This document shows, piece by piece, positions 31,801-47,822 of a stretch of DNA of 64,000 nucleotides. The notes beneath the pieces were generated by a model that did not search any database, had not been told where the DNA came from, and saw only the letters and a program-made list of their open reading frames with translations. How positions within the stretch are numbered: position 1 is the stretch's first letter; each line of letters begins with the position of its first letter. The translations under genes and the position numbers were made by a program. The DNA comes from Desertimonas flava (GTDB lineage Bacteria; Actinomycetota; Acidimicrobiia; Acidimicrobiales; Ilumatobacteraceae): assembly GCF_003426815.1 (NCBI RefSeq), contig NZ_QKYK01000004.1, forward strand, positions 62,001 through 126,000, written 5' to 3'.

Positions 31801-32414
31801 TCGATGCCGCCGAGGTGTTCGATGCCTTCCGGCGTGCCGAGGATCTCGAATCCGTCGGCGGTCGCCTCGAGGACGGCGGCGTCGAAGGTCCCGCCACCGA
31901 GGTCGTACACCACGACCGTGTCGCCGATGGCCAGCCGTTGCGTCGACGCGTAGTAGCGGGCGGCCGCCTCCGGCTCGGTGACGGTGGTCGCCGTCTCCAG
32001 GTCGGCCAGCCGCACGGCCTGTTCGAGCAGACCGAGCTTGTACGGGCCCCAGTTCGCCGGGTGGCTGACGGCCACGTGCTCCGGAGGCCCACCCTGTTCG
32101 GCGGTCACGAGGTCGATCACCCAGCGGAGCACGCTCGCCATCAACGCCTGGGGCGCCATCGGGGTGCCGCCGAGCAGCAGCGGAGCCGTGTCGCCCACGC
32201 GTCGCTTGAACTCCCGAGCGACCCGGGCCGGCGACGTGACCGCCCGCCGATTGGCCGTCTCACCGATCAGCAGCTGACCCTCCTCGGTGAGGAAGACGAC
32301 GGTGGGCACGACCGAGGAGCGCAACCCGAGCTGGACGACCTCGGCGCGTCCGTCAGCGACGACCGCGGCGCTCGTGTAGGTCGTCCCGAGGTCGATCCCC
32401 AGCACGTAGCTCAA
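28878..32414 (-). CDS. Membrane-anchored Hsp70 ATPase domain fused to a beta-propeller
   Basis: A 1178-residue chimera. Residues 1 to about 355 are an Hsp70/DnaK nucleotide-binding domain (IDLGTTYTSAAVV, VVYDLGGGTFDAAVLE, AVLLVGGTSRMPVVADLV). The Hsp70 substrate-binding domain is absent. A Pro/Gly-rich linker leads to one membrane helix (about 463-485, YIGAPLLVIVVVAAILIA). Outside, a Thr/Glu/Pro repeat stalk (about 571-725, units of VETTEP) precedes a seven-bladed-type YVTN/Vgb propeller (about 778-1058, e.g. VGAFPDGVATDAAGRLW), then a C-terminal domain ending in DVNGDGAPD, an EF-hand-like loop. Start is TTG 32414 with a G-rich ribosome site. A role linking cytoplasmic ATPase and cell-surface sensing is inferred. 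Confidence 0.88.
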   Translation of the reverse strand: MSYVLGIDLGTTYTSAAVVADGRAEVVQLGLRSSVVPTVVFLTEEGQLLIGETANRRAVTSPARVAREFKRRVGDTAPLLLGGTPMAPQALMASVLRWVIDLVTAEQGGPPEHVAVSHPANWGPYKLGLLEQAVRLADLETATTVTEPEAAARYYASTQRLAIGDTVVVYDLGGGTFDAAVLEATADGFEILGTPEGIEHLGGIDIDEAVFGLVARELGGALDGLDPDDPLVTAGAARLRRDCVEAKEALSTDTEAVIPVMLPNVQREVRITRDELEALVRPSLAATIGALERALRSAQVTPDQLDAVLLVGGTSRMPVVADLVSEALGRRVAVDTHPKHAVSLGTALEAEAGLARERGRSLPPGAEIIPPRNTPLAAPNSPTPPPTPPPPAEPPTSDDLAPADGPPSGRSRPTVRSAMATPPPLPPPSGPGGPGGDDGDAEGGAAGDGGGGAGGGIDWRRMLYIGAPLLVIVVVAAILIASRGGGGGDGDDGQGANQAVATNSTESSTTAGSPITSTTNGPAETAVSPETDAAADSDAAAASTSTTIPPDDATTAPLGDVQTLDAVVEETTAPVTASTEPVETTEPPAATTEPVETTEPAAVTTTEPATITTAVEVVETTGAVETTEPVETTEPAETTDPVETTEPVATTEPVVETTEPVETTEPVLTTEPVETTEPTVETTEPVETTEPVLTTEPVATTEPVVETTEPVETTEPALTTEPVATTSTSTTTSTTSTTTTTSTTVPATTSTAPPSTTTSTSSTTAAPTTVPLPNAQVAALSTGRRVPVGAFPDGVATDAAGRLWTAASFGDRVTRLEPVTGQQEVITLEPGSKPIAVLSTPDAVFVTLAGTDQLARINPETLEVERLAVGDQPAFLALGADSLWVVGDTGQIDRVDPVSFTVTASVDVPGAKGVAIAGNAAWVTASSTNELVKIDLASNQVLGRFPIGTGPDAIVADGSAVWVANRGEGTVARFDSIYQQVTNQVNIGTAPAGLAIDGDRLWVIDTEAGTLVLVDRTTATVTQTIDVGRRPLGLQPLGAVVWVGLAGDNVLAEVRVWVDAPTTPRAEIVSIETVGQRYIPTIATQNFAPAVGGDLHVHLYWNSAPAEAAGMPGTVQWLVWDQPERVDDVFFDVVNRPADANAICVVVTIGTHEIADVNGDGAPDYDTGNCMQLPDAPV
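30241..30696. repeat. 18-bp coding minisatellite in the Hsp70-propeller gene
   Basis: About 25 imperfect tandem units of 18 bp (plus-strand form GGCTCCGTCGTCTCCACC and variants) encode the VETTEP-type stalk on the minus strand. There are also longer blocks of nearly identical sequence within it. Such a tract is prone to length variation by slippage. Confidence 0.85.
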
Positions 32415-32593: not shown

Positions 32594-35500
32594 TTGACGT
32601 TGCGGGCGGCGTTCGCGACGCTCCATCTCGTGGAAGCACCCGGGCTGGGTGGCCGGGCGGGGCCCGACGCACCGTTGATCGAGATCCGGGAGTGGGGTCG
32701 CCCGGCGCGCCGGTTCGCCCTCACCCAGCCGACGGAGTTCGGTCGGGACTGCGACGGTGAGCTGCTCGACGACTCCGAGGTGTCGCGCCGGCACCTCCGG
32801 CTGGTCGCCAGCCCGACGGCGCTGTCGGCCGTCGACCTCGGCAGCAGGAACGGGACGATGCTCAACGGGGTCGCGCTCCACGGGCGGGCCTCGCTGCGCA
32901 CCGGTGACGTCATCCGCATCGGCCGCTCGGAGATCATCGTCCTCGACGCGCCGATCGATGGACCCCGCGACGACGACGCCGATCACGCCGACGAGTACGA
33001 CGCGGCGCGGCAGACACTGCGCCCGGTCACGTCGGCACCGATACCACCGCCGCCGGCGAGCGCCGAGCGGCCCGCCTCGACGGCGATCGCCATCGCCACC
33101 CGGTTGCTGGACATCGAGCGCCGTGACGGAACCGACCCGTTCGCGGCATTCACCGAGCTGCCGTCACGGGTCCCGCGATGGCTGTGGCCCGTCGCTCGGG
33201 TGGTCAGCCTCGGCGCGTTCGTCACGCTCGCCGTCGCCCTGTTCGTCCGGCCGGTGGGCGGCCTGTTCGTGCTGTTCGGGGTCATCGTGCCACTGCTCCC
33301 TGTGCTGTTTCTGGGCGCCCCCGGCTTCTGGCGCAACGTCTGCCCGCTCGCCACGTGGAACCAACTTCCCCGGGTGCTCGGATTCGCTCGCGCCGGCAAT
33401 CCGCCCGACGTGATCTACGGGCGCGGCTACCTGATCGCCGTCGCCTTGTTCTTCGGGATCGCCGGGTCGCGACTGGCCGGGCTCGACCGCACCGGCGCGG
33501 CGGCCGGCGTGGCGCTCGTCGGCGCGGGCTCGGCGGCGCTCGTCGGCGGCGTGTTCTACAAGGGCAAGAGCGGATGGTGCAGCAGCATCTGCCCGTTGTT
33601 CCCGCTGCAGCGGGCGTACGGGCAGACGCCGTTCGTCACCGTGCCCAACCGGCAGTGCCCCTCGTGCGTCGGCTGCGCGAAGAACTGCTACGACTTCCGA
33701 CCGGTCGCGGCCTACCAGGCCGATCTCGTCGACACCGACCGGTCGTGGAGCGGGCCCCGCAAGCTGTTCGCCGCCGCCCTGCCCGGCTTCGTCCTCGGGT
33801 TCTTCAACCTCGCCGGTGACGCCGATCGTTCGCTGCCGGGCACGTACGCCCTCCTCGCCCTCGTCGTGCTCGTGGCGGTCGGCTCGTTCTTCGCCATCGA
33901 GGCGGTGACGCCGCTGAGCCCGTCGATGCTCACGGCCGGCTACGTCGCCGTCGCCCTCAACGGCTTCTACTGGTTCGCCGGCCCCGTGATCGCGGCGTCG
34001 GCGGCCGAGATCACCGGCGTCGAGATGGCGTGGGTGCGTTGGCCGATCAGCGCGGCGATCCTCCTCGCCTCGTCGCTCTGGCTCGCCCGGACCCGGGTGC
34101 GCGAGCTGCAGTTCGCCGTGGCGACCGGTGTGCGCACCGAGCCGGTGGCCCTGCCGTTCCCGAGACGGCGGCCCGACGCGGCGGCACCCGCACCGGCGGC
34201 GCAGGTGCGCTTCGGTGCCGAGGCACCGGCCGTCGCCGCCGACTCCGGCGCCAGCTTGCTCGAGGTGGCCGAACGGGTCGGCCTGCCGATCGAGGCCGGC
34301 TGCCGCATGGGCGTGTGCGGCGCCGACCCGGTCGCGGTGCTCGACGGGACGTCGTGCCTGTCGCCGCCCGACCAGGACGAGCGCAACACGCTCCGCCGGC
34401 TCGGCTTCGCCGCCAACACCCGCATGGCCTGTTGCGCCCGCCTCGATGCCGGGTCGGTGACCGTGTCGCTCACGCCGGAGCCCGGCGACGGTGCGGCCGG
34501 GCCCGGGGCTGCTGATCGGGCCGGCGTCGACCGCTCGATCGTCAGCGTGGTGGTGATCGGCAACGGCATCGCCGGGGTCACCGCCGCCGACTTCGTACGG
34601 CGCGGGCACCCCGACTGCGAGATCCACCTCGTCGGTCGCGAGCCACACGGTCTCTACAACCGCATGGGCATCTCCCGGCTCGTGTACGGCCGCTCGGCGA
34701 TGCACGGGCTCTCGCTCCTGCCCGACGGCTGGTACGACGACCACGCCATCACCGCCTGGCTCAACACGCTCGTCACCAAGATCGACGTCGAGGCGCGACG
34801 CGTCCACCTCGGCACCGGCCAGGTGATCCCGTACGACCGGTTGATCCTCGCCATGGGTGCGGCCAGCGCGGTCCCGCCGATCCCCGGGTTGGACCGGCCG
34901 GGATGCTTCGTGTTGCGCGAGGCGGGCGACGCGATGCAGCTGCGTGCCTACGTCCAGCGGCACCGCGGCACGCGGGCGGTCGTCGCCGGCGCCGGTCTGC
35001 TCGGGCTCGAGGCGGCCTACGCGCTGCGGCAGCTCGGCCTGGGCGTGACGGTGCTCGAGCGCAACGATCGGCTGCTGCACCGCCAGGTCGACGCCCGTTG
35101 TTCGGAGATGGTGCGGCAGCACCTCCAGCGCCTCGGCATCGACGTGCAGTGCCGGTCGGAGGCGGCACAGATCGCGGGCGACCCCGCCGTCACCTCCGTC
35201 ACGCTGGCCGACGGACGCGTGCTCGACTGCGACATCGTGCTGACCGCCGTGGGAATCCGGCCGAACGTCGATCTGGCGCGTGAGGCCGGCATCCCCGTCG
35301 GCAACGGTGTGCTGGTGGACGACCGGATGCAGACCAACGTGGCCGGCGTGTACGCGGCCGGGGATGTCGCCGAACACCGCGGCACGATCCACGGCCTGTG
35401 GCCGATCGCCGCCGAGCAGGCGCAGGCGGCGGCGGTGAACGCGCTCGGGGGCGACATGGAGATCGTCACCGAGACGCCGGCCACGATCCTCAAGGGCGTG

Positions 35501-35779
35501 GGTCTGGGGCTGTTCGCGATCGGCCGGACCGAGGCCAAGGCGGGCGACGACGTCATCACCGTCGAGGGCTCGGCCCCGCCGTCGTACCGACGGCTCGTCC
35601 TGATGGACGGCCGGGCGGTGGGCGCGGTGATCCTCGGTCCCCACCCCGCCGACCAGGCCGCCGTACACACCGTCGTCCGCAACCGGCTGGAGGTGCCCGT
35701 CGGTGTCCGCAGTGCCCTTCGCGCCGGCGACTGGTCGCCGCTCCATCACCTGGCGACGGCGGCAAGTCAGCCGGCGTGA
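32594..35779 (+). CDS. FHA domain / membrane polyferredoxin / 2Fe-2S ferredoxin / FAD-NAD oxidoreductase fusion
   Basis: A 1061-residue multidomain redox protein. Residues about 28-118 are an FHA phosphothreonine-binding domain (FGRDCDGELL, SRRHLRL, GSRNGTMLNG). From about 196 to 505 come membrane helices with NapH/NosR-like cysteine motifs (NVCPLATWNQL; CSSICPLFP; CPSCVGCAKNC), i.e. iron-sulfur ligands. A plant-type 2Fe-2S ferredoxin domain follows (AGCRMGVCGADPV, RMACCARL). From about 655 there is a pyridine nucleotide-disulfide reductase with FAD (VVVIGNGIAG), NAD (GAGLLG) and AAGD motifs. Electrons could pass from NAD(P)H through FAD to the membrane centres. The start is not certain (TTG 32594). 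It ends three bases before the converging FHA gene. Confidence 0.85.
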   Translation: MTLRAAFATLHLVEAPGLGGRAGPDAPLIEIREWGRPARRFALTQPTEFGRDCDGELLDDSEVSRRHLRLVASPTALSAVDLGSRNGTMLNGVALHGRASLRTGDVIRIGRSEIIVLDAPIDGPRDDDADHADEYDAARQTLRPVTSAPIPPPPASAERPASTAIAIATRLLDIERRDGTDPFAAFTELPSRVPRWLWPVARVVSLGAFVTLAVALFVRPVGGLFVLFGVIVPLLPVLFLGAPGFWRNVCPLATWNQLPRVLGFARAGNPPDVIYGRGYLIAVALFFGIAGSRLAGLDRTGAAAGVALVGAGSAALVGGVFYKGKSGWCSSICPLFPLQRAYGQTPFVTVPNRQCPSCVGCAKNCYDFRPVAAYQADLVDTDRSWSGPRKLFAAALPGFVLGFFNLAGDADRSLPGTYALLALVVLVAVGSFFAIEAVTPLSPSMLTAGYVAVALNGFYWFAGPVIAASAAEITGVEMAWVRWPISAAILLASSLWLARTRVRELQFAVATGVRTEPVALPFPRRRPDAAAPAPAAQVRFGAEAPAVAADSGASLLEVAERVGLPIEAGCRMGVCGADPVAVLDGTSCLSPPDQDERNTLRRLGFAANTRMACCARLDAGSVTVSLTPEPGDGAAGPGAADRAGVDRSIVSVVVIGNGIAGVTAADFVRRGHPDCEIHLVGREPHGLYNRMGISRLVYGRSAMHGLSLLPDGWYDDHAITAWLNTLVTKIDVEARRVHLGTGQVIPYDRLILAMGAASAVPPIPGLDRPGCFVLREAGDAMQLRAYVQRHRGTRAVVAGAGLLGLEAAYALRQLGLGVTVLERNDRLLHRQVDARCSEMVRQHLQRLGIDVQCRSEAAQIAGDPAVTSVTLADGRVLDCDIVLTAVGIRPNVDLAREAGIPVGNGVLVDDRMQTNVAGVYAAGDVAEHRGTIHGLWPIAAEQAQAAAVNALGGDMEIVTETPATILKGVGLGLFAIGRTEAKAGDDVITVEGSAPPSYRRLVLMDGRAVGAVILGPHPADQAAVHTVVRNRLEVPVGVRSALRAGDWSPLHHLATAASQPA

Positions 35780-35782
35780 GCG

Positions 35783-37222
35783 TCAGATGTCGTCGCGGAA
35801 CGTGAACACGTGCGTGGCCACGCTGAGGCTCCAGCCCGAAGGCAGCTCGGTCGGCTCGGACCCCACCATCTCCCACGCGTCCGCCCCCGGGGCGGCGACG
35901 AAGGTTCCGGCGGGCGTGCCGGCGTCTCGCACCGACACCCTGCCGTCGACCACGGAGACGTGGGCGTGCACGCGCGACACCTGGTCGTCGCGGAGCACGA
36001 TCGGTGAGGCGAGGCCCTGGCGAACCGACTCGTCGGACAGCGGCTCGCGGCCGATGACGTAGGAGCGATCGAGCGGATAGATGGCGCCGCCCTCGACGGC
36101 GGTCAGCGAGCCCACCCGGCGGGCGACCTCGACGGTCGGGTTGCCCGGCCGCGCGGCCGGCACCACACCAGGGGGTCGGGTGAGCCCCTCGTACACGAAC
36201 GTGCGACGGCCGACGGCCCCGTGCTCCCCCGGCCGGATGACGCGTGGCTGACCCGGGATCAGACGGTCCCAGGCGCCGCTGGTCTCGTTCCAGAGGTGGG
36301 TGCCGTTCGTCGATCCACGGTCGATCAGATGGACCTCGGGGGCGGCCAGGCGCACTTCGGCGTGCACGCGCGACACCGTGTCGGCCGCGTCGTCGAGGGC
36401 GATCGGCCGAGCGCTCCCCGCCACGACCGACTCGTCGATCTCGGGCTCACGTCCGAGCACGTAGTCCTCGTCGAGCCCGAACGCCGACCCGTCGTCGAAG
36501 ACGAGGAGGCCGAGCGACATCCGCTGATCGCGCGGATCCGGAGCCGGCAGCGCGGCCGGCTCGGCGGAGACCGCCTCCTCGACCGCCTCGGCCGGCTCGG
36601 CCGCTGCCGCTGCCACGCCGGACTCGTCGACGGCCGCCGGCGCACTGGCCGCCGGCCGTTCCACGCCGTCCACCGGGAGCGGAGGTCTGGGCTCGACGCC
36701 CTCGGCCGACAGGGGGAACAGTTCGAACTCCGTGGCGACCACCGGGGCGACCTGCCTGGCCGTCGCGGTGACGCGCAGCCAGCCGCCCGGGACGACGCCC
36801 GCTTCGAGCCGCAGCGGGCTGCTGCCCGGTCGTGCCGATCCGGCCGGGGTGATGAGCACGGCGTCGGCCGTCGCCGGGACGATCCGGTCGGTCCACGTGA
36901 CCGACGAGGCGCCCGACAGCACCTCCTCGGTGCCGGCCGCCGTCACCGCGGCCTCGACCGGACCGTGCAGGAGCACGAGCCAGCCGTCGTCGAGCGCGGC
37001 GATCGCGCCGAAGGCCGGCGTCTCGTCGTCGCCGGTGACGAGCGCGGCGAGCCGCTGGGCCAGCGGGCGACCCGGTGGCCCGTCGGCCGCGGCCACGTCG
37101 CGCACCAGATCGACGAGCCGTTCGGCGGCGTCACCGTCGACCACGAACAGGGCGACGTCGCCGACAGCGGCCACGACTCCCGAGCCGCTGCCGAGCTCGA
37201 TGGTCGGCCAGTCCCGGGGCAT
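35783..37222 (-). CDS. Double-FHA-domain protein
   Basis: A 479-residue cytoplasmic protein. About the first 190 residues are an unrecognised domain beginning PTIELGSGSGVVAAVGD, followed by an Ala/Glu/Pro-rich linker. FHA domain 1 (about 255-345) has YVLGREPEIDESV, SRVHAEV and RGSTNGTHLW, intact for phosphopeptide binding. FHA domain 2 (about 385-479) has YVIGREP and SRVHAHV but AGTPAGT in place of S-x-N-G-T, so its binding loop is altered. ATG 37222 is used; it lies 25 bp after the pseudokinase stop. It is the last gene of the kinase/lipid run and likely reads phosphorylation set by the neighbouring kinases. Confidence 0.85.
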   Translation of the reverse strand: MPRDWPTIELGSGSGVVAAVGDVALFVVDGDAAERLVDLVRDVAAADGPPGRPLAQRLAALVTGDDETPAFGAIAALDDGWLVLLHGPVEAAVTAAGTEEVLSGASSVTWTDRIVPATADAVLITPAGSARPGSSPLRLEAGVVPGGWLRVTATARQVAPVVATEFELFPLSAEGVEPRPPLPVDGVERPAASAPAAVDESGVAAAAAEPAEAVEEAVSAEPAALPAPDPRDQRMSLGLLVFDDGSAFGLDEDYVLGREPEIDESVVAGSARPIALDDAADTVSRVHAEVRLAAPEVHLIDRGSTNGTHLWNETSGAWDRLIPGQPRVIRPGEHGAVGRRTFVYEGLTRPPGVVPAARPGNPTVEVARRVGSLTAVEGGAIYPLDRSYVIGREPLSDESVRQGLASPIVLRDDQVSRVHAHVSVVDGRVSVRDAGTPAGTFVAAPGADAWEMVGSEPTELPSGWSLSVATHVFTFRDDI

Positions 37223-37247
37223 CAGCGCCTCACCACCGCGCGCGTGG

Positions 37248-38063
37248 TCATGTCGTCGCCGCCAGCCGGTCGAGTTCACCTGCGAGCAGTTCGGCCGTCG
37301 CCGGACGGTCGGCCCGTTCCGCGCTGAGGCACCACGAGATCAGCTCGGCCTCCTCGTCGCTCAGGCCGTCCGCCAGCGCCGGCGGGGTCTCCAACACATG
37401 GCGGAGGGCGGCGAACACACTCTCGGTGGGGAGCTCACCGAAGACCGACGCGGACGTCAGCGAGCGATGCAGCGTGACGGCGAGCGCCCAGATGTCCGAT
37501 GCCCTGCCGGCCGGGCGGCCGAGCAGGGCCCCCGGTTCGGTGAACTCCATGGCGCCGACCGGGCCGATCCCCGTGACCGTTTGACCCGGGGCGAGGAGGT
37601 GGGCGAGACCGACGTCGGCGAGCTTGCCGCCCGCACCGTCGAGCATGACGTTGCTCGGCTTGATCGCGCGGTGGGCGATCCCGGCTTCGTGCAGGGCGTG
37701 GGCGCCGCGAGCCGCGTCGGCGACGGCGCGCAGGGTCTGGGCCCGCGTCGGCGCCGTGGCCGGCCGGGCCAGCGATCCACCGGCGCAGAGCTCGGTGACC
37801 GTGAAGATCGTCCCGTCCTGGTGACCGGCGTCGAGGAGGGCGACGAGCGAGGGAGCCTCGACCGAGGAGATCTGCCGCAGCTCGTCGGCCACGCGCCGGC
37901 GGGCGTCGGGGCCGGCCGCCGTGGCATGGACCTTGAGCACGACCCGGTCACCGGCGAGCCCGAGACGCGAAGGTGGGCGGGCGACGATGCACTCGCCGTG
38001 GCTCCCGCGACCGAGCTCCTCGATCGGCTCGTAGTCGGCGATCGGTCGCGAGGTGTCCAGCAT
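37248..38063 (-). CDS. Ser/Thr kinase-like protein, predicted pseudokinase
   Basis: A 271-residue kinase fold without a membrane anchor. The glycine loop LGRGSHGE and Lys44 are present, but the catalytic HRD is HRA (Ala133 in AHRAIKPSN, confirmed by the GCG codon), DFG is DVG (150-152), and the APE loop reads GAMEFTEP. Loss of the catalytic Asp predicts no phosphotransfer, so it probably acts as an allosteric partner or scaffold. It starts nine bases after an intact kinase and precedes the double-FHA gene, which fits a signalling complex. Confidence 0.82.
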   Translation of the reverse strand: MLDTSRPIADYEPIEELGRGSHGECIVARPPSRLGLAGDRVVLKVHATAAGPDARRRVADELRQISSVEAPSLVALLDAGHQDGTIFTVTELCAGGSLARPATAPTRAQTLRAVADAARGAHALHEAGIAHRAIKPSNVMLDGAGGKLADVGLAHLLAPGQTVTGIGPVGAMEFTEPGALLGRPAGRASDIWALAVTLHRSLTSASVFGELPTESVFAALRHVLETPPALADGLSDEEAELISWCLSAERADRPATAELLAGELDRLAATT

Positions 38064-38072
38064 GGCCGGGCG

Positions 38073-39521
38073 TCAACGAGTGCTGCGAGAGAGATCGGAC
38101 AACAGGCCCTCGCACGTCCGCACGACGTCTCCGGCCGCAGCGGCGACCGCACGCGACGTCAGCGGGTGCTCGGCCCGGCGCTTCCAGCGCTCGATGACGG
38201 CCTCGGCAGCCGCGCGCAGTTCGTCGGCCGATGCGTCGGCCTCGAGCCCGAGGCGGTCGGCCGCCGTGGTGCCGGCGCCGCCGATCAGCCGCTCGACCTC
38301 GGCCTGGTCGTCGGGCGGCAACGTCAGCTCGCCGGATCGCAACTTGCGGAGGAGCGCCAGCTCGCGCAGCTCGTGGGCCGTCGACTCGGCGCGCTCGATC
38401 TCGCTGGCGAGGCGCCGGGCCTCGGTCGTGGTGGCGCGGCCGAGGAGGAGCCGCAGTTCCCGGAGGTGCTCCTGCCGGCTGTCCTCGGCGTTCTCGGCCA
38501 CCGGCAGCAGCGTCGCCGGGTCGGCGGGCGGGGGCCCGACGGCACGCGTCACCCGCTCGGGACGAACGGGACCGCCGACCGAAGGCGGCGGGGTCACCGC
38601 GGCCACGTGCTCGGTGAGGGCGGCGACCTGACCGCCGAGCGACGCGCGCAATCCCGTGCGCGCCAACCAGCCGCGTCCGAATACGTCGGTCGCCCGCTCG
38701 GCCAGCTCCATGGCGAAGGCGTGGGCGGTCGGAGGCCGGTGCTCGGGATCGGTCATCAGCGCCCACATCACCAGTTCGGCGATGCGGTCGGGGACGGTCG
38801 GCGCGACGGACGGGAGCGGGGTCGGCGACGTGTGCACCCGCTGATAGAGCACGGCGAGCGCCGACTCCCCGCGGGGGAACGGCAGCGTGCCCGACAGCAG
38901 CTCGTAGAGCGTGACGCCGAGGGCGTAGACATCGGTCGCCGGCGTGACCGGTCCGCCGGTCGCCTGCTCGGGCGCCATGTAGGCCGGCGTCCCGAGCACC
39001 TCACCGGCCGCCGTGGCCATCGTCCGCCCACCGGCGATGACGCGGGCGATGCCGAAGTCGGCCACCTTCACCTGAGCAAGATCGCCGGTGAACAGCAGGT
39101 TCTCCGGCTTGATGTCGCGGTGCAGCACGCCGTGGCTGTGGGCGTACTCGAGCGCCACCGCCGTGCAGAGCACCATGCCGCACGTCGAGCGCGCATCGAG
39201 CCCCTCGGACGTGAACCGGGTCCACGCCGTGCCGCCCGACAGCTGCTCCATCACCAGCAGGCACAGGCCGTCGCGCTCGACGTAGTCGTACACCGGGACG
39301 ATGTGCGGGTGGTCGAGCGACGCCAGCAGCCGGGCCTCGGCGGCGAACCGGGCGCGGACATCGGGGTCGCTGGCGAAGGCAGGGGGCAGCTGCTTGATCG
39401 CGACGTCACGGCCGAGGCGTGTGTGCCGCCCGGCCAACACGACGCCCCATCCCCCGCGGCCCAGCTCATCACCGATGTCGTAGCCCGGGAGGGCGGCGGC
39501 AACGGCGTCCCGATCGGTCAT
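38073..39521 (-). CDS. Ser/Thr protein kinase with C-terminal helical extension
   Basis: A 482-residue protein. The kinase domain (about 14-275) is complete: LGRGGWGVV, Lys43, HRDIKPEN with Asp136, ADFGIA and TPAYMAPEQ. The remaining 200 residues are mostly helical and charged (HLRELRLLLGRATTTEARR and onward), with no membrane helix. The last 60 residues, LGLEADASADELRAAAEAV...AEHPL, vaguely recall a J-domain with HPL for HPD; this is only a suggestion. ATG 39521 is the start; longer frames upstream are shadows. It is probably the activator or partner of the pseudokinase that follows. Confidence 0.88.
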   Translation of the reverse strand: MTDRDAVAAALPGYDIGDELGRGGWGVVLAGRHTRLGRDVAIKQLPPAFASDPDVRARFAAEARLLASLDHPHIVPVYDYVERDGLCLLVMEQLSGGTAWTRFTSEGLDARSTCGMVLCTAVALEYAHSHGVLHRDIKPENLLFTGDLAQVKVADFGIARVIAGGRTMATAAGEVLGTPAYMAPEQATGGPVTPATDVYALGVTLYELLSGTLPFPRGESALAVLYQRVHTSPTPLPSVAPTVPDRIAELVMWALMTDPEHRPPTAHAFAMELAERATDVFGRGWLARTGLRASLGGQVAALTEHVAAVTPPPSVGGPVRPERVTRAVGPPPADPATLLPVAENAEDSRQEHLRELRLLLGRATTTEARRLASEIERAESTAHELRELALLRKLRSGELTLPPDDQAEVERLIGGAGTTAADRLGLEADASADELRAAAEAVIERWKRRAEHPLTSRAVAAAAGDVVRTCEGLLSDLSRSTR

Positions 39522-39562
39522 CGTCGCGAACAGTACTTGTGGTTGGGGCCGGGCCGTCCGGT

Positions 39563-40420
39563 TCAGTCGAGTCGGGAGCCGAGCCGGAGCAGCTGTCCGA
39601 ACATCCCGGCGCTCTGTGGGCGGCGGTCGGGGTCCTTCGCCAGGGCCATGAGGATGGCGTGACCGAGATCGGCGGGAACGTCGGGGACGCGGGTGGACGG
39701 GTCCTCGGGAGCATCCTGGAGGTGGGCCCACAGCACCTTCATCCCCTTGCGGTCGGCGAAGGGCGGCGCCCCGGTGATGCAGGCGTAGGCCACACAGCCG
39801 AGGGCGTAGACGTCGGTGGCCGGCGTGACCGCGTCGCCGCGGATCTGTTCCGGCGAGATGTAGTCGATGGTGCCGAGCGCCTGTCCGGCGGCCGTCAGCA
39901 GCGTCCCATTGGTCTCCTTCACGAGACCGAAGTCGGCGATGTAGGCGGTGTCGGCTGGTCCGGCGTCGAGGAGGATGTTGGCCGGCTTGACGTCGCGGTG
40001 GACGATGCCGGCGGCGTGCATCGCGTCGAGCCCGCTGGCCACCTGGCGGCAGATCCGCACCGTCGTCGACGCGTCGAGGCGGCGCTCGCGCTCGATGCGC
40101 TGGGCGAGCGTGCCCCCGCCGATCAGCCGTTGCACCATGTAGGGCGTTCCGTCCTGCTCACCGGTGGCCAGCACGGGCACGACGTGGTCGTGTTCGATGC
40201 CCTGGGCGATGCGGGCCTCACGGTTGAAGCGGCGGCGGAACGTCATGTCGTCGGCGAGGTCCGGCTTGACCACCTTGAGCGCGACGGCACAGCCGGACTC
40301 GTCCTCGGCGCGGTAGACGAACCCGACCCCGCCTTCGCCGAGCAGTCCGGTGACCACGTAGTCGCCGAAGCGTTGGCCGACGCTCGCCGGGCTGTTCGGG
40401 TTTCCGGCGGGTCCGCTCAT
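39563..40420 (-). CDS. Ser/Thr protein kinase, PknB-like catalytic domain
   Basis: A 285-residue protein consisting almost only of a kinase domain: LLGEGGVGFVYRAED, Lys49, HRDVKPAN with Asp143, ADFGLV and TIDYISPEQ. There is no juxtamembrane segment or PASTA domain, so it is soluble; it may be held at the membrane by the preceding membrane protein, whose stop overlaps its ATG (ATGA at 40417-40420). It should phosphorylate Ser/Thr residues recognised by the FHA proteins of the locus. Confidence 0.92.
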   Translation of the reverse strand: MSGPAGNPNSPASVGQRFGDYVVTGLLGEGGVGFVYRAEDESGCAVALKVVKPDLADDMTFRRRFNREARIAQGIEHDHVVPVLATGEQDGTPYMVQRLIGGGTLAQRIERERRLDASTTVRICRQVASGLDAMHAAGIVHRDVKPANILLDAGPADTAYIADFGLVKETNGTLLTAAGQALGTIDYISPEQIRGDAVTPATDVYALGCVAYACITGAPPFADRKGMKVLWAHLQDAPEDPSTRVPDVPADLGHAILMALAKDPDRRPQSAGMFGQLLRLGSRLD

Positions 40421-41130
40421 CGGTCGACTCCGAGCAGCGAGCGTGACGTGGAGCCGGGTGTGAGCTGGAGGTCCTGGAAGGCCTTGGCCGCGGCGCGCCA
40501 GTCGAACTCGGTGCCGGGCTCTCCGCGGCGGTGGACCTGGATGGCGTAGCCGATCGCCCCCAGCAGGCCCATCGTGGCGAAGGCGATCTGCACGCTGAGC
40601 TTGCCTTCCTCGGACCAGTAGACGTCGTCCAAGGACAGCAGGAGGGCGGCCTCGTCGAGCACGAGCGCGCTGCCGATGCCGAACGGGATCGCCAGCCAGC
40701 GGTTGCGCGAGTCGCGCGACAGGCTGATCGCCGAGCCGCCGCTGAGCAGGCTGAGCACCGTGCCGGGGACGAGGTGGTGGATGTGGCGACCGCCGGCGAC
40801 GAGGTTGCGGATCGGGCCGAGTCCACCGCGGGCGCGGATGGCGTGGGTGATCCCGCGAGTGATGGCGAACGTGGTGACGAACGAGGCGACCATGTTCAAG
40901 ATCGCGTTCTCGCGTGTAGAGCTGACCTTGTAGCCCTCGTAAAGGACGGCCGGCACCCGCCGCAGCGGGATGCGACCGTCGGTGTCGTCCTCGCCGTAGA
41001 TCACCGGCATCTTGCCGAGGCGCCAGACGCGCACCGTCTCGGCGCCCAGGAGCACGCCGACCGTGCCCACGGACAATCCGCCGAGCGCCTTGGTGCCCCA
41101 GGCGATGCGATTCAGTCGCCGCGTGCTCAC
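40417..41130 (-). CDS. Conserved membrane protein coupled to the kinase genes
   Basis: A 237-residue protein with about five hydrophobic segments (GGLSVGTVGVLLGAETV; ILNMVASFVTTFAITRGI; LVPGTVLSLLSGGSAISL; WLAIPFGIGSALVLDEAALL; QIAFATMGLLGAIGYAI). A His-rich HIHHLVPG loop and a D-E-A motif in helix four could bind metal. The family is not recognised. GTG 41130 is selected because it overlaps the previous stop (GTGA); its own stop overlaps the kinase start. It may anchor or sense for the kinase. Confidence 0.75.
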   Translation of the reverse strand: MSTRRLNRIAWGTKALGGLSVGTVGVLLGAETVRVWRLGKMPVIYGEDDTDGRIPLRRVPAVLYEGYKVSSTRENAILNMVASFVTTFAITRGITHAIRARGGLGPIRNLVAGGRHIHHLVPGTVLSLLSGGSAISLSRDSRNRWLAIPFGIGSALVLDEAALLLSLDDVYWSEEGKLSVQIAFATMGLLGAIGYAIQVHRRGEPGTEFDWRAAAKAFQDLQLTPGSTSRSLLGVDR

Positions 41131-41774
41131 GCCGCCGGCTCCCGGCGTCGCGGCTTGCCGTACACCCGCCACAGCTCGCCGAGGAAGAGGCGATTGAAGC
41201 GCAGCAGCGCCCCGACGTTGCCGGCGGCACCGGCACCCCGCGCGCGGAACGTGGTGAGCTGTCGGGCGAAGGAGCGGGGGGTGATCCGCAGGATCCCCGA
41301 GGCGATGATCGGTGCGGCCTCGTCGCCATCGGCCTCCACGTGGCCCGACAGCAACCGCGTGAACAGCGTGGTCGTGTCGGGCCAGAGATCGAAGCCGGGA
41401 TCGTCGGCGATCACCTTGTGGCCGACGAGCGTCAACGGCGACCCGACGCCGTCGCGGAAGTGGAGGCGGTAGCGCATGCGCCGCTCGCCCCGGCGCTCGG
41501 TGGCGACGAAGAGGTGGAAGCGACCCTGCTCGACGGGACGCTTGCCGCCGAGCGCCTCACAGCGGATCCAGCCGGTGGCCGCGGCCTCGTGGGTCGCATC
41601 GGCCACGAACTCGTCGATGGGCGGGGTCTCGATCGTCAGGTGGAACAGCAGCGAGGTCTTCGCTGCGACGCCGCGCTCGTGGCCGCGCTCGTAGTCCTCC
41701 TCGCCGAACGCGAGGTGACCCTGCATCTCCTCGGTGAACCGCACGCTGGCGGCCGTGGTCGTCGTCCCCGTCAT
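41127..41774 (-). CDS. GMC-oxidase-associated domain protein
   Basis: A 215-residue protein with mixed beta strands (FHLTIETPPIDEFVADATHE; RFHLFVATERRGERRMRYRLHF) and a C-terminal helix ending in LLRFNRLFLGELWRVYGK. As I recall, a comparable domain links GMC oxidase and hydrolase domains in large cholesterol-oxidase-like fusions; here it is a separate gene beside both parts. That parallel is from family knowledge and should be checked. ATG 41774 starts seven bases after the GMC gene stop. Confidence 0.65.
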   Translation of the reverse strand: MTGTTTTAASVRFTEEMQGHLAFGEEDYERGHERGVAAKTSLLFHLTIETPPIDEFVADATHEAAATGWIRCEALGGKRPVEQGRFHLFVATERRGERRMRYRLHFRDGVGSPLTLVGHKVIADDPGFDLWPDTTTLFTRLLSGHVEADGDEAAPIIASGILRITPRSFARQLTTFRARGAGAAGNVGALLRFNRLFLGELWRVYGKPRRREPAA

Positions 41775-41781
41775 CGAAGTC

Positions 41782-43517
<1,736 letters not shown>

Positions 43518-43521
<4 letters not shown>

Positions 43522-44999
43522 CCGGTGGACCTCCCCCAGATCTCGGCCGTCTCCCGCTGGCGCCGAACGTGTTCGGGCGCGGCGAACCGCTCGTAGTACG
43601 GCAGCTCGACGTGTGAGAACTGTGCCCAGATGCCCGGCAGGTTCCAGGCGTCGGTGTGGGCCGGGAAGCGACCGTACGTGTCGTAGATGTACGAGCAGAT
43701 CTCCTTGGTGTAGGCGACCGCTTCGCGCGGGTGCGGCGCCTGGAGGCGGAGATAGGCCTCGGCGTCGGCCCGATCGCGATAGCGCGTGGCGAACACCTCG
43801 GCGTCGGCGTAGGCGCCACCGTTGCCGTACTTCTCCTCGAGCACCATGTCGACCGCTTCGTCCATCGACGACACGTACGGGGGACAGAGCCCTTGGAGAA
43901 CCCCGTCGATCCCGACGTAGTTGGGCTGGGACGCCGGTGTCGGCGGCCAGCGCCGCCACCGCGACAGCTTCGGGCCATGCTCGCGGAACCCGAGCCCGAG
44001 CAGCCCTGCCGACTCGTCGCGCTGCATCACGTACGGCGGCAGCGGGCACGAGTGGATCCAGCCGCCGAGGCCGAGCGCCTCACCCGTCAGCAGCAGGGTC
44101 TGCAGGCCGAGGAACGCCTCGTGGTCGGTACGGGCGCTGCCGACGAATCCGAGGGGCGCCGGGACGTCCTTGGTGAAGCGACCCTCGCGGACCCGCTTGA
44201 CGCCGCCGATCGGTTGGTACGGGATGCGCTCGACGAGCCGCAGGTTCATCGCCGCCCAGGCGAGCCAGTCGGTGAGGGTGCGCGGATGGAACGTCCGGAA
44301 GTCGTCGATGAACAGCGGGGCCTTCCCGGCCGGCTCGCTCGCCAGGATCAACATGGCGTTGATGTACTGGCGGGTGTTGTCGACGACGGGCAGGAAGCAC
44401 GTCGTGCCCGGTGCGTTCGAGTGCTGGGCGTTCCAGCCGAGGTAGTAGGGCCACTCCCGGGGGAACGACATGCGGTCGGCGTACACCCTGCGCTTCACGT
44501 GGTCGGCGGCGGCCACCCAGTCGGCCTCGGTGCGGTCGGCCCACCGCGCCGGGAAGTCGCGGAGGAAGTCGGCGGCCTCGCGGCCGCGCAGCCGGCGGAT
44601 CAACCACACGCCCTCGTCGTTGATCATGAAGAAATGCGTCGCCTGGGCGTTGTCGGCGCTCGACGCCCCGCCGGCGACGACGTTGAGGAACGGGCTGCCC
44701 AGCTCGTCGGCGCCGCCCGGCTTCGTCAAAGGACCGTCGTGCAGCACGGCCCCGGTGGTCCCGATCGACGCGATCAGGATCGCCTCCTCGAGCGGGCTGA
44801 GCGGCTCGGGCTCGCTCGTACTGTGGTGACTGAGCGGCCCGGCCTCGATCGAGACGCCGCGGGCCACGCGCCGCGTGCGCCGCTCCCGGACGGCATCGAT
44901 GAGGGGGTAGCTGAACAGGTCGCGGAGGCCGGCATGATCGGCCGCCCCGGCGGCGTCCGCAGTGTCGGTTCCCGCCTCGTCCACCCGCATGTCGTCCAT
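43518..44999 (-). CDS. Conserved protein of the sterol-oxidase cluster, possibly nitroreductase-like
   Basis: A 493-residue soluble protein that I do not firmly recognise. The region PLSPLEEAILIASIGTTGAV and the following FMN-type segment with NAQATHFFMINDEGVWLIRRL recall the nitroreductase fold, extended by a large C-terminal part (GWNAQHSNAPGTTCFLPVVD, YEKYGNGG-like VLEEKYGNGGAYADAEVFA). It starts at ATG 44999, where the hydrolase stop overlaps by one base (TGATG), and ends overlapping the GMC gene. Constant coupling to these two suggests action on the same substrate, perhaps in electron transfer. Confidence 0.6.
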
Positions 45000-46084
45000 C
45001 AGTTGAACCGTTCCAGCTCCTCGAGCGCGAGTGGGAACACGTCGACCGCCGCCCCCTCGCCGATCCAGCAGTCCATGTGCGCATAGCCCGGAATGACCGT
45101 CCGGCGGTAGAGGTCGTCACCGTTCACGGCCCGCAACGCGTCGTAGGTGAGCTCGGTGGAGCGCGGGATGAACATCCGGTTGTGCTCGCCGTGCAGGAAC
45201 GTGATCGGGATCGCCACGCGGTCGAGGTGCGGCATGTAGACGTCCTGGCCGGCGGCATCGACGACGTGCCCCTTGCGGATCATCGCCGTGATGTGCTTGA
45301 ACGCCGTCAGCCGCGTCTTGCCGAAGATGTGGACGATCGCGTCGTGGGTCGCCTCGTTCAGCTGATCGTGGTCGAAGACCTCGCCGTAGATGAACAGGAT
45401 GCGATGGCAGACCTCGCTGTCACACTTCTCCCGCGTCGGCCAGTGCTTCATCACCCGTTCCAGTGCCCGGTCCTCGAACGCCGAGCTGTGAAACGTCGTG
45501 GTGAGCCGCTCGATCCCGACGCCGTGCAGCAGGGCGGCCATGCGGCTCTGCGCCTTCATGCGGTTGATCGCCACGGGGATCGGGTGCAGACCGAGCTGCG
45601 AGCACACTGCCGAGCGCACGCCCGACATGCCGGTCGTCATCGCCATCAGGAACGTCAGCGAGCCCATGCAGTGCGGCACCACCTGCACCGACTCGGCCCC
45701 GGTCACCTCGAGCACCTTGGCGATCGCCGCCGGCCAGTCCCGCGTCGCGATGTCGTCCATCGTGTAGTCGGTCGACGCGGCCGGCAGCATCGGGCTGGCG
45801 CGGTAGTCGAGCAGCCAGATGTCGTAGCCGTGCTCGGCGAGGTATTCGGGGAAGTTGGTCTCGACCGTGTCGATCGTCCAGGCGAGCGTCGACGTCCCGT
45901 ACCCGGGCGCGAGCACGACCGGGCCCTTGTTGCCGGCCGGGAAGCGGGTCAGGCGAATGTCCCGACCGTCACTCGTGGTGACGTCGAAGATCGTCTCGCC
46001 ATCGAGACGCAACGGCCGATGCGGAACAGGCAGGATCCCCGACGGCATGGGGGCGAACGTATCCCTCGCCGAGAGCCAGTGCAT
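44999..46084 (-). CDS. Alpha/beta hydrolase with Cys at the nucleophile position
   Basis: A 361-residue hydrolase fold: oxyanion region VVLAPGYGTSTLAW, elbow VVPHCMGSLTF with Cys139 where Ser is usual, a candidate Asp/Glu in FLHGEHNRMF, and a late His in GYAHMDCW. Hydrolases of this type occur as a domain or partner of GMC cholesterol-oxidase-like proteins. The Cys is confirmed by the TGC codon. ATG 46084 is chosen since AGGGGGA lies about seven bases upstream; ATG 46048 lacks a ribosome site. It is the first gene of a nine-gene coupled run. Confidence 0.82.
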   Translation of the reverse strand: MHWLSARDTFAPMPSGILPVPHRPLRLDGETIFDVTTSDGRDIRLTRFPAGNKGPVVLAPGYGTSTLAWTIDTVETNFPEYLAEHGYDIWLLDYRASPMLPAASTDYTMDDIATRDWPAAIAKVLEVTGAESVQVVPHCMGSLTFLMAMTTGMSGVRSAVCSQLGLHPIPVAINRMKAQSRMAALLHGVGIERLTTTFHSSAFEDRALERVMKHWPTREKCDSEVCHRILFIYGEVFDHDQLNEATHDAIVHIFGKTRLTAFKHITAMIRKGHVVDAAGQDVYMPHLDRVAIPITFLHGEHNRMFIPRSTELTYDALRAVNGDDLYRRTVIPGYAHMDCWIGEGAAVDVFPLALEELERFN

Positions 46085-46221: not shown

Positions 46222-47421
46222 ATGACGGCGATCGAAGGACCCGACACCACCGAGCGCGTCTGGAGCGCCCGGCGGGTCGGGCCGCTGACGATCGAGTGGC
46301 GCGGACAGCGCACGCTGGCCGGCTGGTCCGACGACGTCGTCACGGTCGGCATCGGCGCCATCGGCGCTGCGGCGATGTACTGGGACTCGTGGCGCCACAA
46401 CGGCAAGGCGATCGCGAGCGACGGCTTCTGGAGCCCGCCGCACATCCTGCTGTACGTCGCGCTCGGCGCCGTCGGCTACTGGATCGGGCTCATCGTGCTG
46501 CGGCGTCAGCAGCCCGGGTTCAAGGCGCTCAATCTGGCTGCCATCCCTCGCGGCTACGGCATCGGCATGGTGGGGCTCGCCCTTGCCGGCGTCGGCGGCA
46601 TCGGTGACTACATCTGGCATGCCATCTTCGGGTTCGAGGATCAGGTCAACGCCTTCTGGAGCCCGCCCCACCAGCTGCTGTTCCTCGGCGGGACGCTGGT
46701 GGTGACGGCGCCGCTCGTGTCGAGCTGGTATCGCCATGACGGTCCACTCGACGCCCGCAGCGCGGTGCCGGTCGTCGGGTCGCTGGCGCTCATCATGAGC
46801 ACGGCCACCTATGCCCTGACGCACCTGTCGCCGCTGTGGAACAACCTCGCACCGACGCCGGCGTTCCAGCAGCAACTCACCCGCTTCGACGACGCCTATC
46901 CGGCCGGGGACCTCGGTCCGGGCCACGTCGGCCTCGACGTCGCCGTGCGCAACCTCGGCGACTCGAGCTTCCCGTACTACTTCCACACGCTGAACCACTC
47001 GGTGGCCTCGTTCCTGCTGCTGTCGATCACGCTCGTCGCGCCGGTGCTGTTCCTGGTTCGTCGGTGGTCCCCGCCGCCCGGCGCGGTTGCCGTGATCTTC
47101 GGCCTCTACGGCCTCGTGGCCAGCATCCCGACGGAGTTCCGCGACATCGAGCTCGTCGCCGGGCTCGTGGTGGCCGGCGCGGTGATCGACGTGCTGATCG
47201 CCCGGCTGCAACCGGCGTTGCCGTCACGTCCGTGGCAGTTCCGCGCCATCGGGGCATTGGTGCCGCCACTGTCGATCGGGGGGTATCTCCTCGCCCTCGA
47301 GGTGCTCGGCGCCGGCCTGGCCTGGGGCATCTCGATCTGGCTCGGCGTGATGATCACGGCGGGCATCATCGGACTGGGCCTGGCGTGCCTGATGGCCCCG
47401 CCCAGCACCGGCGCCCGATGA
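46222..47421 (+). CDS. Polytopic membrane protein of unknown function
   Basis: A 399-residue protein with about nine or ten helices and repeated W-S-P-P-H elements (GFWSPPHILLYVALG; AFWSPPHQLLFLGG), which suggest an internal duplication with His residues at the membrane surface. No family recognised. It is divergent from the hydrolase and coupled by ATGA (47418-47421) to an SCP2-like gene, so a role with membrane lipids or sterols is a reasonable guess. Confidence 0.75.
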   Translation: MTAIEGPDTTERVWSARRVGPLTIEWRGQRTLAGWSDDVVTVGIGAIGAAAMYWDSWRHNGKAIASDGFWSPPHILLYVALGAVGYWIGLIVLRRQQPGFKALNLAAIPRGYGIGMVGLALAGVGGIGDYIWHAIFGFEDQVNAFWSPPHQLLFLGGTLVVTAPLVSSWYRHDGPLDARSAVPVVGSLALIMSTATYALTHLSPLWNNLAPTPAFQQQLTRFDDAYPAGDLGPGHVGLDVAVRNLGDSSFPYYFHTLNHSVASFLLLSITLVAPVLFLVRRWSPPPGAVAVIFGLYGLVASIPTEFRDIELVAGLVVAGAVIDVLIARLQPALPSRPWQFRAIGALVPPLSIGGYLLALEVLGAGLAWGISIWLGVMITAGIIGLGLACLMAPPSTGAR

Positions 47422-47822
47422 AGGCGACGACCCTCGTCAGCGTGGCCCGGCGCACGCCGCGACCGATCCTGCGCATGGCGACGCGACGGCCGGCGAGCGG
47501 CGCCGTGATCGGTCAGGTCTTCCGGCGCATGCCCGAGCTCCTCAGCCCCGCCGGCCGCAAGGCACGCGGGGTGATCCGCTTCGACATCCGGACCGGGTCG
47601 GCCGTCGAGACGTGGTACGCCACCTTCGGCGCCGGGACGTGCACCACCGGGCGCCGGGTCGACACCCGTCCCCGGGTGACGATCTCCCTCGAGGCCCTCG
47701 ACTTCGTGCAGCTGGCCAGCGGCACCGACCCGATCGAGCTGTTTCGCGCCGGCCGGCTGCGCCTCGCCGGCGACACCTACTTCGGCGCATCGGTGGGCGA
47801 GCTGTTCGACCTCCGCCCCTGA
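47418..47822 (+). CDS. SCP2 sterol-carrier-like protein
   Basis: A 134-residue protein beginning at ATG 47418. KARGVIRFDIRTGSAVETWYATF, then RPRVTISLEALDFVQLASGTDP and LRLAGDTYFGASVGELF follow the SCP2 pattern of a beta sheet closed by helices around a lipid-binding tunnel. Such proteins carry sterols or acyl-CoA. Together with the GMC oxidase cluster on the other strand it supports a lipid or sterol theme for this region. Confidence 0.78.
   Translation: MKATTLVSVARRTPRPILRMATRRPASGAVIGQVFRRMPELLSPAGRKARGVIRFDIRTGSAVETWYATFGAGTCTTGRRVDTRPRVTISLEALDFVQLASGTDPIELFRAGRLRLAGDTYFGASVGELFDLRP

What the first reader, a model, noticed from the sequence alone, without database searches (positions are those of the whole stretch)
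35783..46084. Nine-gene coupled operon joining sterol/lipid oxidation with a kinase-pseudokinase-FHA signalling set
Minus-strand genes run from 46084 to 35783: Cys-nucleophile hydrolase, conserved unknown, GMC oxidase, companion domain, membrane protein, kinase, kinase, pseudokinase, double-FHA protein. Junctions are TGATG, GTGA, 7 bp, GTGA, ATGA, 41 bp, 9 bp and 25 bp, so co-expression is very likely. An SCP2-like carrier diverges from its head. Combining a lipid oxidase module with a whole writer/reader phosphorylation set in one transcript is, to my knowledge, not a described system.
Basis: partly seen in the sequence, partly recalled or inferred. Interest (0 to 1): 0.75.

Follow-up and report, generated by a model that had tools for sequence, protein, structure and literature searches.

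The report
Lipid-oxidase genes joined to phospho-signalling cassette
A run of nine bacterial genes looks like two older gene sets joined end to end: a fat- or sterol-like oxidation set that already sits beside a protein kinase in distant relatives, and a kinase-like protein plus phospho-reader pair that elsewhere accompanies quite different membrane genes.

Summary
The nine genes, coordinates and tight junctions are real. The single-system reading is only partly right. Module A (hydrolase, unknown, GMC oxidase, companion, membrane protein, first kinase): at all seven Solirubrobacter-group loci found, an STK1 relative lies with GMC, companion and membrane protein; the kinases are reciprocal best hits in S. 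soli. Module B (pseudokinase + FHA) recurs at 29 other loci examined, with an FHA gene close by at 25 and module-A genes at none; 11 have another, oxidoreductase-like membrane operon. The seam is the 41-bp gap before the second kinase, where a promoter-like hexamer lies. The pseudokinase family has changed its catalytic Asp repeatedly (absent in 13 of 29; at least 5 changes), yet FHA phosphothreonine-binding residues are intact in 20 of 25 partners; they are all lost in one clade whose pseudokinases are degenerate. I read module B as a portable phospho-docking pair, working like mycobacterial MviN-FhaA, here placed behind a lipid-type oxidation operon with its own kinase. Substrate, transcription and binding are untested; the join is seen in one genome.

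The parts
44999..46084 (-). HYD, gene 1: alpha/beta hydrolase with Cys at the nucleophile position (PHCMGS); possible start at 46048 after TACGTT. Module A
   Evidence: Pfam Abhydrolase_1 E 7.6e-9; Cys in 66 of 67 aligned family rows, one gap; start hexamer
43518..44999 (-). NTR, gene 2: conserved unknown, 493 aa, only a faint nitroreductase hint. Module A
   Evidence: No Pfam/NCBIfam at E 0.01; 55% relative near GMC in Pleurocapsa L055; 59% in L142; 69% in G113 without GMC beside it; nitroreductase match E 0.028 in one relative
41782..43521 (-). GMC, gene 3: FAD-dependent GMC oxidoreductase with a CxxCGxCxxGC motif. Module A
   Evidence: GMC_oxred_C E 1.2e-20; cholesterol oxidase chains are the best PDB sequence hits; below the cholesterol oxidase cut-off
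41127..41774 (-). CMP, gene 4: companion domain, predicted beta barrel plus C-terminal helix. Module A
   Evidence: Present at 72 of 80 GMC loci and fused to GMC at 41; model pLDDT 91.4
40417..41130 (-). MEM, gene 5: putative membrane protein with HIHH and LDExxLLLxxDDVYW motifs. Module A
   Evidence: 53% identical to the S. soli protein beside GMC; one hydrophobic segment over threshold
39563..40420 (-). STK1, gene 6: soluble Ser/Thr kinase, canonical motifs. Belongs with module A
   Evidence: Pkinase E 1.1e-46; reciprocal best hit of the GMC-adjacent kinase in S. soli
39522..39562 (-). 41-bp seam between modules; TACTGT ends 8 bases before the STK2 ATG (leaderless-promoter-like)
38073..39521 (-). 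STK2, gene 7: soluble Ser/Thr kinase with a C-terminal extension. Assigned to module B
   Evidence: Pkinase E 1.5e-48; no hydrophobic segment over threshold; another STK lies within 6 kb of PSK at 9 of 29 loci
37248..38063 (-). PSK, gene 8: kinase-fold protein; Lys and Glu kept, HRD to HRA, DFG to DVG; activation-loop T162/T164. Module B
   Evidence: Pkinase E 1e-27; motifs and tree
35783..37222 (-). FHA, gene 9: two FHA domains, the first with R258/S284/N306 intact, the second lacking the Asn. Module B
   Evidence: FHA E 5.3e-15, two stretches; residues
46222..47421 (+). MEMB: divergent multi-span membrane protein, belongs with module A
   Evidence: 34-35% identical relatives at 6 of 7 Solirubrobacter-group loci; seven hydrophobic segments over threshold
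47418..47822 (+). SCP2-like sterol/lipid carrier overlapping MEMB by 4 bases; membership in module A only by position
   Evidence: Pfam SCP2 E 2.1e-12; no SCP2 relative at the 80 GMC loci
32675..35779 (+). Convergent FHA + membrane + Fer2 + pyridine-nucleotide oxidoreductase fusion, 3 bp from the FHA gene; possible output partner, link untested

Best explanation
Two modules with separate histories lie head to tail. Module A (HYD, NTR, GMC, CMP, MEM, STK1, with divergent MEMB and perhaps SCP2) is a membrane-associated unit that releases and oxidises a hydrophobic alcohol (lipid or sterol-like): a Cys hydrolase frees or transfers the acyl group, the FAD oxidase oxidises the alcohol, and the CMP barrel and SCP2 carry the ligand. 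STK1 is its dedicated kinase. Module B (STK2, PSK, FHA) is a portable phospho-docking set: an active kinase phosphorylates the activation-loop threonines of the catalytically weak PSK, and the first FHA domain reads them, placing the FHA protein on or off a membrane-redox target. In other genomes the target would be the OXR-SMM-TauE operon; here it would be module A or the neighbouring FHA-redox fusion. Shown: gene content, linkage, residue loss and retention. Inferred: substrate, every enzymatic step, phosphorylation, binding, target.
For: Module A with kinase: 7 of 7 Solirubrobacter-group loci (two of the seven GMC proteins are identical); S. soli STK1 hits window STK1 at 253 bits against 137 for the next, and window STK1 best-hits the GMC-adjacent kinase in 4 of 6 genomes. 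The GMC tree puts window and Solirubrobacter rows in one supported set of 10. Module B: FHA on the same strand close to PSK at 25 of 29 loci, with no called gene between at 24 of them; OXR 11, SMM 13, TauE 7, other STK 9 of 29; one natural PSK-FHA fusion (L039). The HRD Asp is absent in 13 of 29 PSK rows with at least 5 forced changes. FHA R/S/N are intact in 20 of 25 (window included), among them all 7 partners of Asp-less PSKs outside family f15; they are lost together in the four f15 loci examined, where PSK motifs are gone, and partly in the fusion L039.
Against: A and B together are seen only in this genome, so cooperation between them rests on one case. The joint FHA/PSK decay is one clade, so close to one event; L021 of that clade keeps both Thr, and L040 keeps an intact FHA without them. 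In 2 of 6 Solirubrobacter-group genomes another STK1 relative, with no GMC in the held stretch, scores higher. L049, nearest to the window in the GMC tree, has no kinase or MEM within the held 10 kb. Only 2 of 80 GMC loci hold any kinase relative. Window STK2 is only 36% identical to the module-B kinase of L024, so its orthology is unproven. OXR is called an oxidoreductase only by eye: no Pfam family at E 0.01, at best E 0.026. No substrate evidence.
Confidence: 0.5

Rival explanations
1. One dedicated system: all nine genes form one transcript in which both kinases, the pseudokinase and the FHA protein regulate the lipid oxidase.
For: Tight junctions throughout; no sigma-70 promoter or terminator match inside; STK1-oxidase linkage is conserved. 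At one PSK-FHA locus (L032) a GMC oxidoreductase of another subgroup lies two genes from FHA (Pfam), though it does not match the window GMC at E 1e-8.
Against: No tested module-A gene at 29 of 29 other PSK loci, within held stretches that are short in some; no relative of the window FHA protein in the held stretches of 80 GMC loci; promoter-like hexamer at the seam. In Solirubrobacter the GMC gene itself follows such a hexamer in the 3 loci scanned, although one needs a start 6 bases further in and one a TTG start.
Confidence: 0.2
2. Fortuitous neighbours: module B landed downstream of module A and has no functional tie to lipid oxidation; its partner is elsewhere, for instance the adjacent FHA-redox fusion or an unlinked gene.
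For: Module combination seen only here; largest gap and a promoter-like element at the seam; PSK-FHA neighbours vary: OXR/TauE, Na/H exchangers, Clp genes.
Against: Same strand with close spacing (41, 9, 25 bp); module B accompanies membrane genes in 11-13 of 29 other loci, as it does here.
Confidence: 0.25
3. PSK is an active, atypical kinase and the HRA change is tolerated, so it is an enzyme, not a docking scaffold.
For: Lys, Glu and DxG metal Asp are kept in the window protein, and 16 of 29 family rows keep the HRD Asp.
Against: The catalytic Asp changed repeatedly (at least 5 forced changes) and all motifs are lost in one clade, with the FHA neighbour kept.
Confidence: 0.1

Closest known systems
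MviN pseudokinase - FhaA pair of mycobacteria
   Same: A kinase-fold scaffold is phosphorylated by an active kinase (PknB) and then recruits an FHA protein to a membrane process (PMC12599244, passage of section 8).
   Different: The MviN domain lies within a transmembrane protein and has motifs VALT / Lsidhpsr / Y--; PSK here is a free 271-aa protein with VVLK / HRAIKPSN / DVG and sits next to its FHA gene.
PknF - Rv1747 operon (kinase with FHA-bearing ABC transporter)
   Same: A two-gene operon joining a Ser/Thr kinase to a transporter with FHA domains (PMC3908365 and PMC5549992, starts of abstracts in the search listing only).
   Different: No pseudokinase and no oxidase (recalled); the FHA domains are part of the transporter.
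GMC cholesterol oxidase family (NF058674; PDB 1coy)
   Same: Best NCBIfam and PDB sequence matches of the GMC protein.
   Different: 204.8 bits against an 850-bit cut-off; the window enzyme is tied to CMP and a Cys hydrolase.
ActPs1-3 actinobacterial pseudokinase families
   Same: Actinobacterial kinase folds with impaired catalytic motifs (PMC12599244: section 4 part 1, sections 6 and 7, passages of 8).
   Different: ActPs1 has all three motifs substituted; ActPs2 mostly has Arg for the beta3 Lys and long insertions; ActPs3 as MviN. PSK keeps Lys and DxG, and its family mixes active-looking and dead members. Apart from MviN-FhaA, the term search showed no FHA pairing in that text.

Membership tests
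MviN/ActPs3-type pseudokinase | Kinase fold lacking the beta3 Lys, HRD and DFG (VALT / Lsidhpsr or Lsidhpdr / Y-- or FPG in the listed members) | tested here: not met
   Window PSK keeps the beta3 Lys and DxG and lacks only the HRD Asp; motif list read
MviN/ActPs3-type pseudokinase | Phosphorylation by a partner kinase and FHA recruitment | not testable with these tools
   Only indirect: conserved T162/T164 and FHA residue pattern
Cholesterol oxidase (NF058674 equivalog) | Score at or above the curated cut-off (850 bits) | tested here: not met
   204.8 bits
GMC oxidoreductase superfamily | GMC_oxred_N and GMC_oxred_C above gathering score, GxGxxG FAD site | tested here: met
   35.4 and 74.9 bits against 23 and 24.6; GSGFGG in the alignment
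Mycofactocin-system GMC (MftG) | Score at or above cut-off (300-400 bits) | tested here: not met
   34.5 to 56.1 bits for three MftG models
PknB/PASTA kinase (NF033483) | Score over 450 bits, with membrane and PASTA segments | tested here: not met
   STK1 260.9 and STK2 261.0 bits; no PASTA match; no hydrophobic segment over threshold in either
FHA domain reader | Arg, Ser, Asn of the phosphothreonine site (residue roles recalled) | tested here: met
   FHA1: R258, S284, N306; FHA2 lacks the Asn by reading its sequence
Nitroreductase superfamily (gene 2) | Profile match or shared fold | tested here: inconclusive
   E 0.028 in one relative; hhalign probability 2.4; structure model failed, pLDDT 30
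Lipocalin-like barrel (CMP) | Fold match to lipid-binding barrels | tested here: inconclusive
   Foldseek: no match at E 0.001; VIA best Z 9.0, rmsd 3.0 over 110 residues, Lumbricus erythrocruorin, with several barrel types close below

The most novel reading that the evidence does not exclude
The pseudokinase-FHA pair is a portable phospho-relay: a kinase fold that evolution has repeatedly stripped of catalysis but kept as a pThr-bearing docking post for an FHA reader, and which is plugged into interchangeable membrane redox operons. In this genome it was plugged into a lipid-oxidase operon that already had its own kinase, giving a metabolic enzyme set with a layered writer-scaffold-reader control.
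Probability: 0.3. Interest if true: 0.7.

Novelty: new variant of a known kind. Interest (0 to 1): 0.52.

Why it matters
Bacterial pseudokinases are mostly without known function (PMC12599244 abstract). A family in which the catalytic Asp has changed several times while the FHA neighbour and its binding residues stay gives a natural experiment: it predicts which pairs bind through phosphothreonine and which do not. The conserved STK1-GMC linkage in a genus with a type strain (Solirubrobacter soli DSM 22325) makes phospho-control of a lipid-type oxidation enzyme directly testable.

Tried and rejected
Sterol pathway: none of the ten neighbouring ORFs scanned matches a steroid-specific degradation family (the SCP2 carrier and a short-chain dehydrogenase are not specific), and the cholesterol oxidase cut-off is missed; substrate left open.

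Nitroreductase identity of gene 2: a stretch like LQNxxLxGxAxGLG suggested it, but profile and fold tests gave no support.

Fold-based function for CMP: barrel only. VIA Z values up to 9 are spread over unlike barrels (OmpA, designed barrels, GID4, pericyclases), so nothing was concluded beyond 'beta barrel'.

Anti-phage defence: PADLOC hits are only matches of the three kinase-fold proteins to many kinase models; the other seven of ten proteins have none at E 1e-5.

Distant MEM relatives: 93 of 232 genomes of the S. soli order match the MEM profile at E 1e-30, but only seven score over 420 bits. Of the 86 others I looked at the surroundings in 14 (L124-L127, L147-L156, L159); none carries a kinase or GMC label (L148 gave no MEM call); L147 has MEM and CMP without kinase. 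So MEM alone is not a marker of the module.

TANNNT as promoter evidence: in the window 7 of 31 first genes, 2 of 22 internal genes and 15 of 3716 random ATG/GTG carry it; but in the relatives' loci the contrast is weak, 45 of 374 first against 23 of 240 internal. I therefore call it promoter-like only.

Selection of loci: of the 29 PSK loci, 28 were taken by score (the 20 best other than the window, then G219 and G209, then all 6 new ones); G202 (95.0 bits) was skipped, and L022 (G050) was added because FHA lay on the same contig. Without L022 the FHA count is 24 of 28. L026, L128 and L133 lack FHA but only 2.3, 0.6 and 2.4 kb are held downstream of PSK; L129 lacks it with 10 kb held. In L033 two genes lie between PSK and FHA; in L027, L029 and L030 FHA is upstream. 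L020 was left out (truncated PSK). The gene caller missed some FHA genes, so counts come from tblastn.

Trees: 12 of 28 inner branches of the PSK tree are drawn open, and 'changes' of the Asp could in principle include regains; the GMC tree is a quick one without bootstrap.

Novelty statement: no paper joining GMC oxidase, Ser/Thr kinase and FHA was seen in the listings, which cover openly licensed PMC papers only; of 139 papers only 15 were listed.
Full report
What is there. The nine minus-strand genes from 46084 to 35783 are real and the junctions are as written. Domain scans give an alpha/beta hydrolase, a GMC oxidoreductase, two canonical Ser/Thr kinases, a kinase fold with HRA in place of HRD, and an FHA protein; genes 2, 4 and 5 match no Pfam or NCBIfam family at E 0.01. 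The divergent side starts with a membrane protein (46222-47421), followed by the SCP2-like protein. The window lies in a 6.22-Mb genome with 15 kinase-domain matches. It shares its phylum, not its class, with Solirubrobacter: four genomes labelled 'same phylum' reappear with identical MEM coordinates in the order of S. soli. I believe the class is Acidimicrobiia, but that is recall, not a result.

Module B on its own. In 218 genomes of the order, FHA-protein relatives occur in 58 and PSK-like kinases at E 1e-20 in 65, the latter including ordinary kinases. I examined 29 loci outside the window. FHA is on the same strand close to PSK at 25, with no called gene between at 24 (downstream at 22, upstream at 3; two genes between in L033). 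A 520-aa oxidoreductase-like protein (OXR) lies within 5 kb at 11, a small membrane protein (SMM) at 13, a TauE-family transporter at 7, another Ser/Thr kinase within 6 kb at 9, and none of seven module-A or neighbour genes tested (GMC, CMP, MEM, HYD, NTR, MEMB, SCP2) matches at E 1e-8 at any. Some held stretches are short. At seven loci the set OXR, SMM, TauE, PSK, FHA lies together, with 4-base overlaps at many junctions. TauE is a Pfam match; OXR has no family at E 0.01 and is named by eye from a GGGxGS stretch and a faint tryptophan halogenase match, E 0.026. One locus has PSK and FHA fused (L039). Against a clean separation: at L032 a GMC oxidoreductase of another subgroup lies two genes from FHA.

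Module A on its own. CMP accompanies it at 72 of 80 and is fused to it at 41; a hydrolase relative lies in the held stretch at 62; gene 2 at 1 (Pleurocapsa); a kinase at 2; MEM and MEMB at 1; FHA and SCP2 relatives at none (stretches of 5.8 to 21.7 kb). In the window's own family CMP is absent from the 36 other genomes searched. The one locus with MEM and MEMB is Solirubrobacter soli, and there three kinase genes lie directly upstream of GMC-CMP-MEM-MEMB, one of them on the opposite strand. A search of 232 genomes of its order found seven with a MEM of over 420 bits. All seven loci carry the STK1 relative (50-54% identity to window STK1), two further kinases, GMC, CMP and MEM; six carry MEMB; one carries hydrolase and gene 2 as well. 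Two of the seven GMC proteins are identical, so there are six distinct ones.

Is STK1 the same kinase? S. soli STK1 hits window STK1 with 253 bits, the next kinase of the window's genome with 137. In the other direction the GMC-adjacent kinase is the best hit in 4 of 6 genomes; in G1037 and G1042 a copy elsewhere scores higher by 25 and 6 bits, and those copies have no GMC in the held stretch. The GMC tree puts window, the seven and two others in one supported set of 10; inside it the window pairs with L049, which has no kinase within the held stretch. So the oxidase-kinase link spans two classes, but loss, transfer and independent gain cannot be told apart.

The seam. The largest gap of the run (41 bp) separates STK1, which belongs with module A, from STK2. 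TACTGT ends 8 bases before the STK2 ATG. In this window TANNNT at 5-9 bases before a start occurs at 7 of 31 first genes, 2 of 22 internal genes (STK2 is one of the two) and 15 of 3716 random ATG/GTG. The contrast is weak in the relatives' loci (45 of 374 against 23 of 240), so this is a pointer, not proof. The sigma-70 and terminator scan found none of either.

A kinase fold kept without catalysis. Thirteen of 29 PSK rows (window included) lack the HRD Asp; the tree needs 8 changes, at least 5 of them forced by well-supported branches, and the close pair L025/L028 differs at this residue. The activation-loop threonines (window T162, T164) are Thr in 22 and 24 of 29. Of 25 FHA partners (window included), 20 keep the Arg, Ser and Asn of the phosphothreonine site, including all seven partners of Asp-less PSKs outside family f15. 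The exceptions are the four f15 loci examined, whose PSKs have lost Lys, Asp and the DFG Asp (and in three of four the threonines), and the fusion L039. This is what one expects if FHA reads a phosphothreonine on PSK, but the clade amounts to about one event, L021 keeps its threonines, and L040 keeps an intact FHA without them.

Comparison with the known. The review of bacterial pseudokinases that I read in part (PMC12599244: abstract, section 4 (part 1 of 2), sections 6 and 7, and passages of 8 and the discussion) describes MviN: its pseudokinase tail is phosphorylated by PknB and recruits FhaA. Module B works like that in my reading, but the window protein is not a member of that family by its motifs, and no other family in the parts I read is described with an FHA partner. 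The linking of a kinase to an FHA-bearing output in one operon is known in PknF-Rv1747 (search listing only). I saw no paper on a GMC oxidase linked to kinase and FHA genes in the listings.

Verdict. 'One undescribed system' becomes 'two conserved modules joined once': a lipid-type oxidation unit with its own kinase, and a pseudokinase-FHA docking pair that travels with different membrane genes. The join itself is seen in one genome only.

Noticed in passing
window 32675-35779 (+): A single 1034-aa protein with an N-terminal FHA, membrane segments, cysteine clusters that look like 4Fe-4S sites (by eye), Fer2 and a NirB-like flavoprotein; ends 3 bp from the FHA gene. A possible direct redox target of module B.
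   Followed up: partly
window 28878-32405 (-): Hsp70-like protein with a beta-propeller region, divergent from the FHA-redox gene; Hsp70 relatives also lie near PSK, FHA or kinase genes in L037, L129 and L134 (in L134 one protein matches both FHA and Hsp70 references).
   Followed up: partly
L024, L031, L033-L036, L038-L040, L130, L131: Recurring OXR-SMM-(TauE)-PSK-FHA gene set with an oxidoreductase-like protein of no Pfam family at E 0.01; I found no description of it in the one search aimed at it.
   Followed up: partly
L021, L022, L042, L043: Clade in which FHA has lost Arg, Ser and Asn of the phosphothreonine site and its pseudokinase neighbour has lost its catalytic motifs: joint decay of a reader-scaffold pair.
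   Followed up: partly
L011:6788-8320, L147:8438-9895: The companion domain CMP is also joined to patatin-like phospholipases, not only to alpha/beta hydrolases (L011 Patatin by Pfam; L147 judged by eye).
   Followed up: no
L027, L029, L030: In three genomes of one family PSK sits near a trigger factor-ClpP-ClpX locus (Pfam on L027; the other two judged by gene lengths).
   Followed up: no
L025:12553-14778, L037:6958-9075: Sodium/proton exchangers lie beside the PSK-FHA pair (Pfam); another such transporter by eye in L033.
   Followed up: no
L032:6542-8185: A GMC oxidoreductase of another subgroup lies two genes from a PSK-FHA pair; it does not match the window GMC at E 1e-8.
   Followed up: no
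window, starts at 8725, 16474, 20760, 23212, 25516, 59147, 61744: TANNNT 5-9 bases before the start codon at 7 of 31 first genes, suggesting leaderless transcripts in this genome.
   Followed up: partly
L012:4542-7799: An AAA_16 protein with a nucleotide-cyclase-like N-terminus lies directly upstream of a GMC-CMP fusion: a different signalling protein next to a related oxidase.
   Followed up: no
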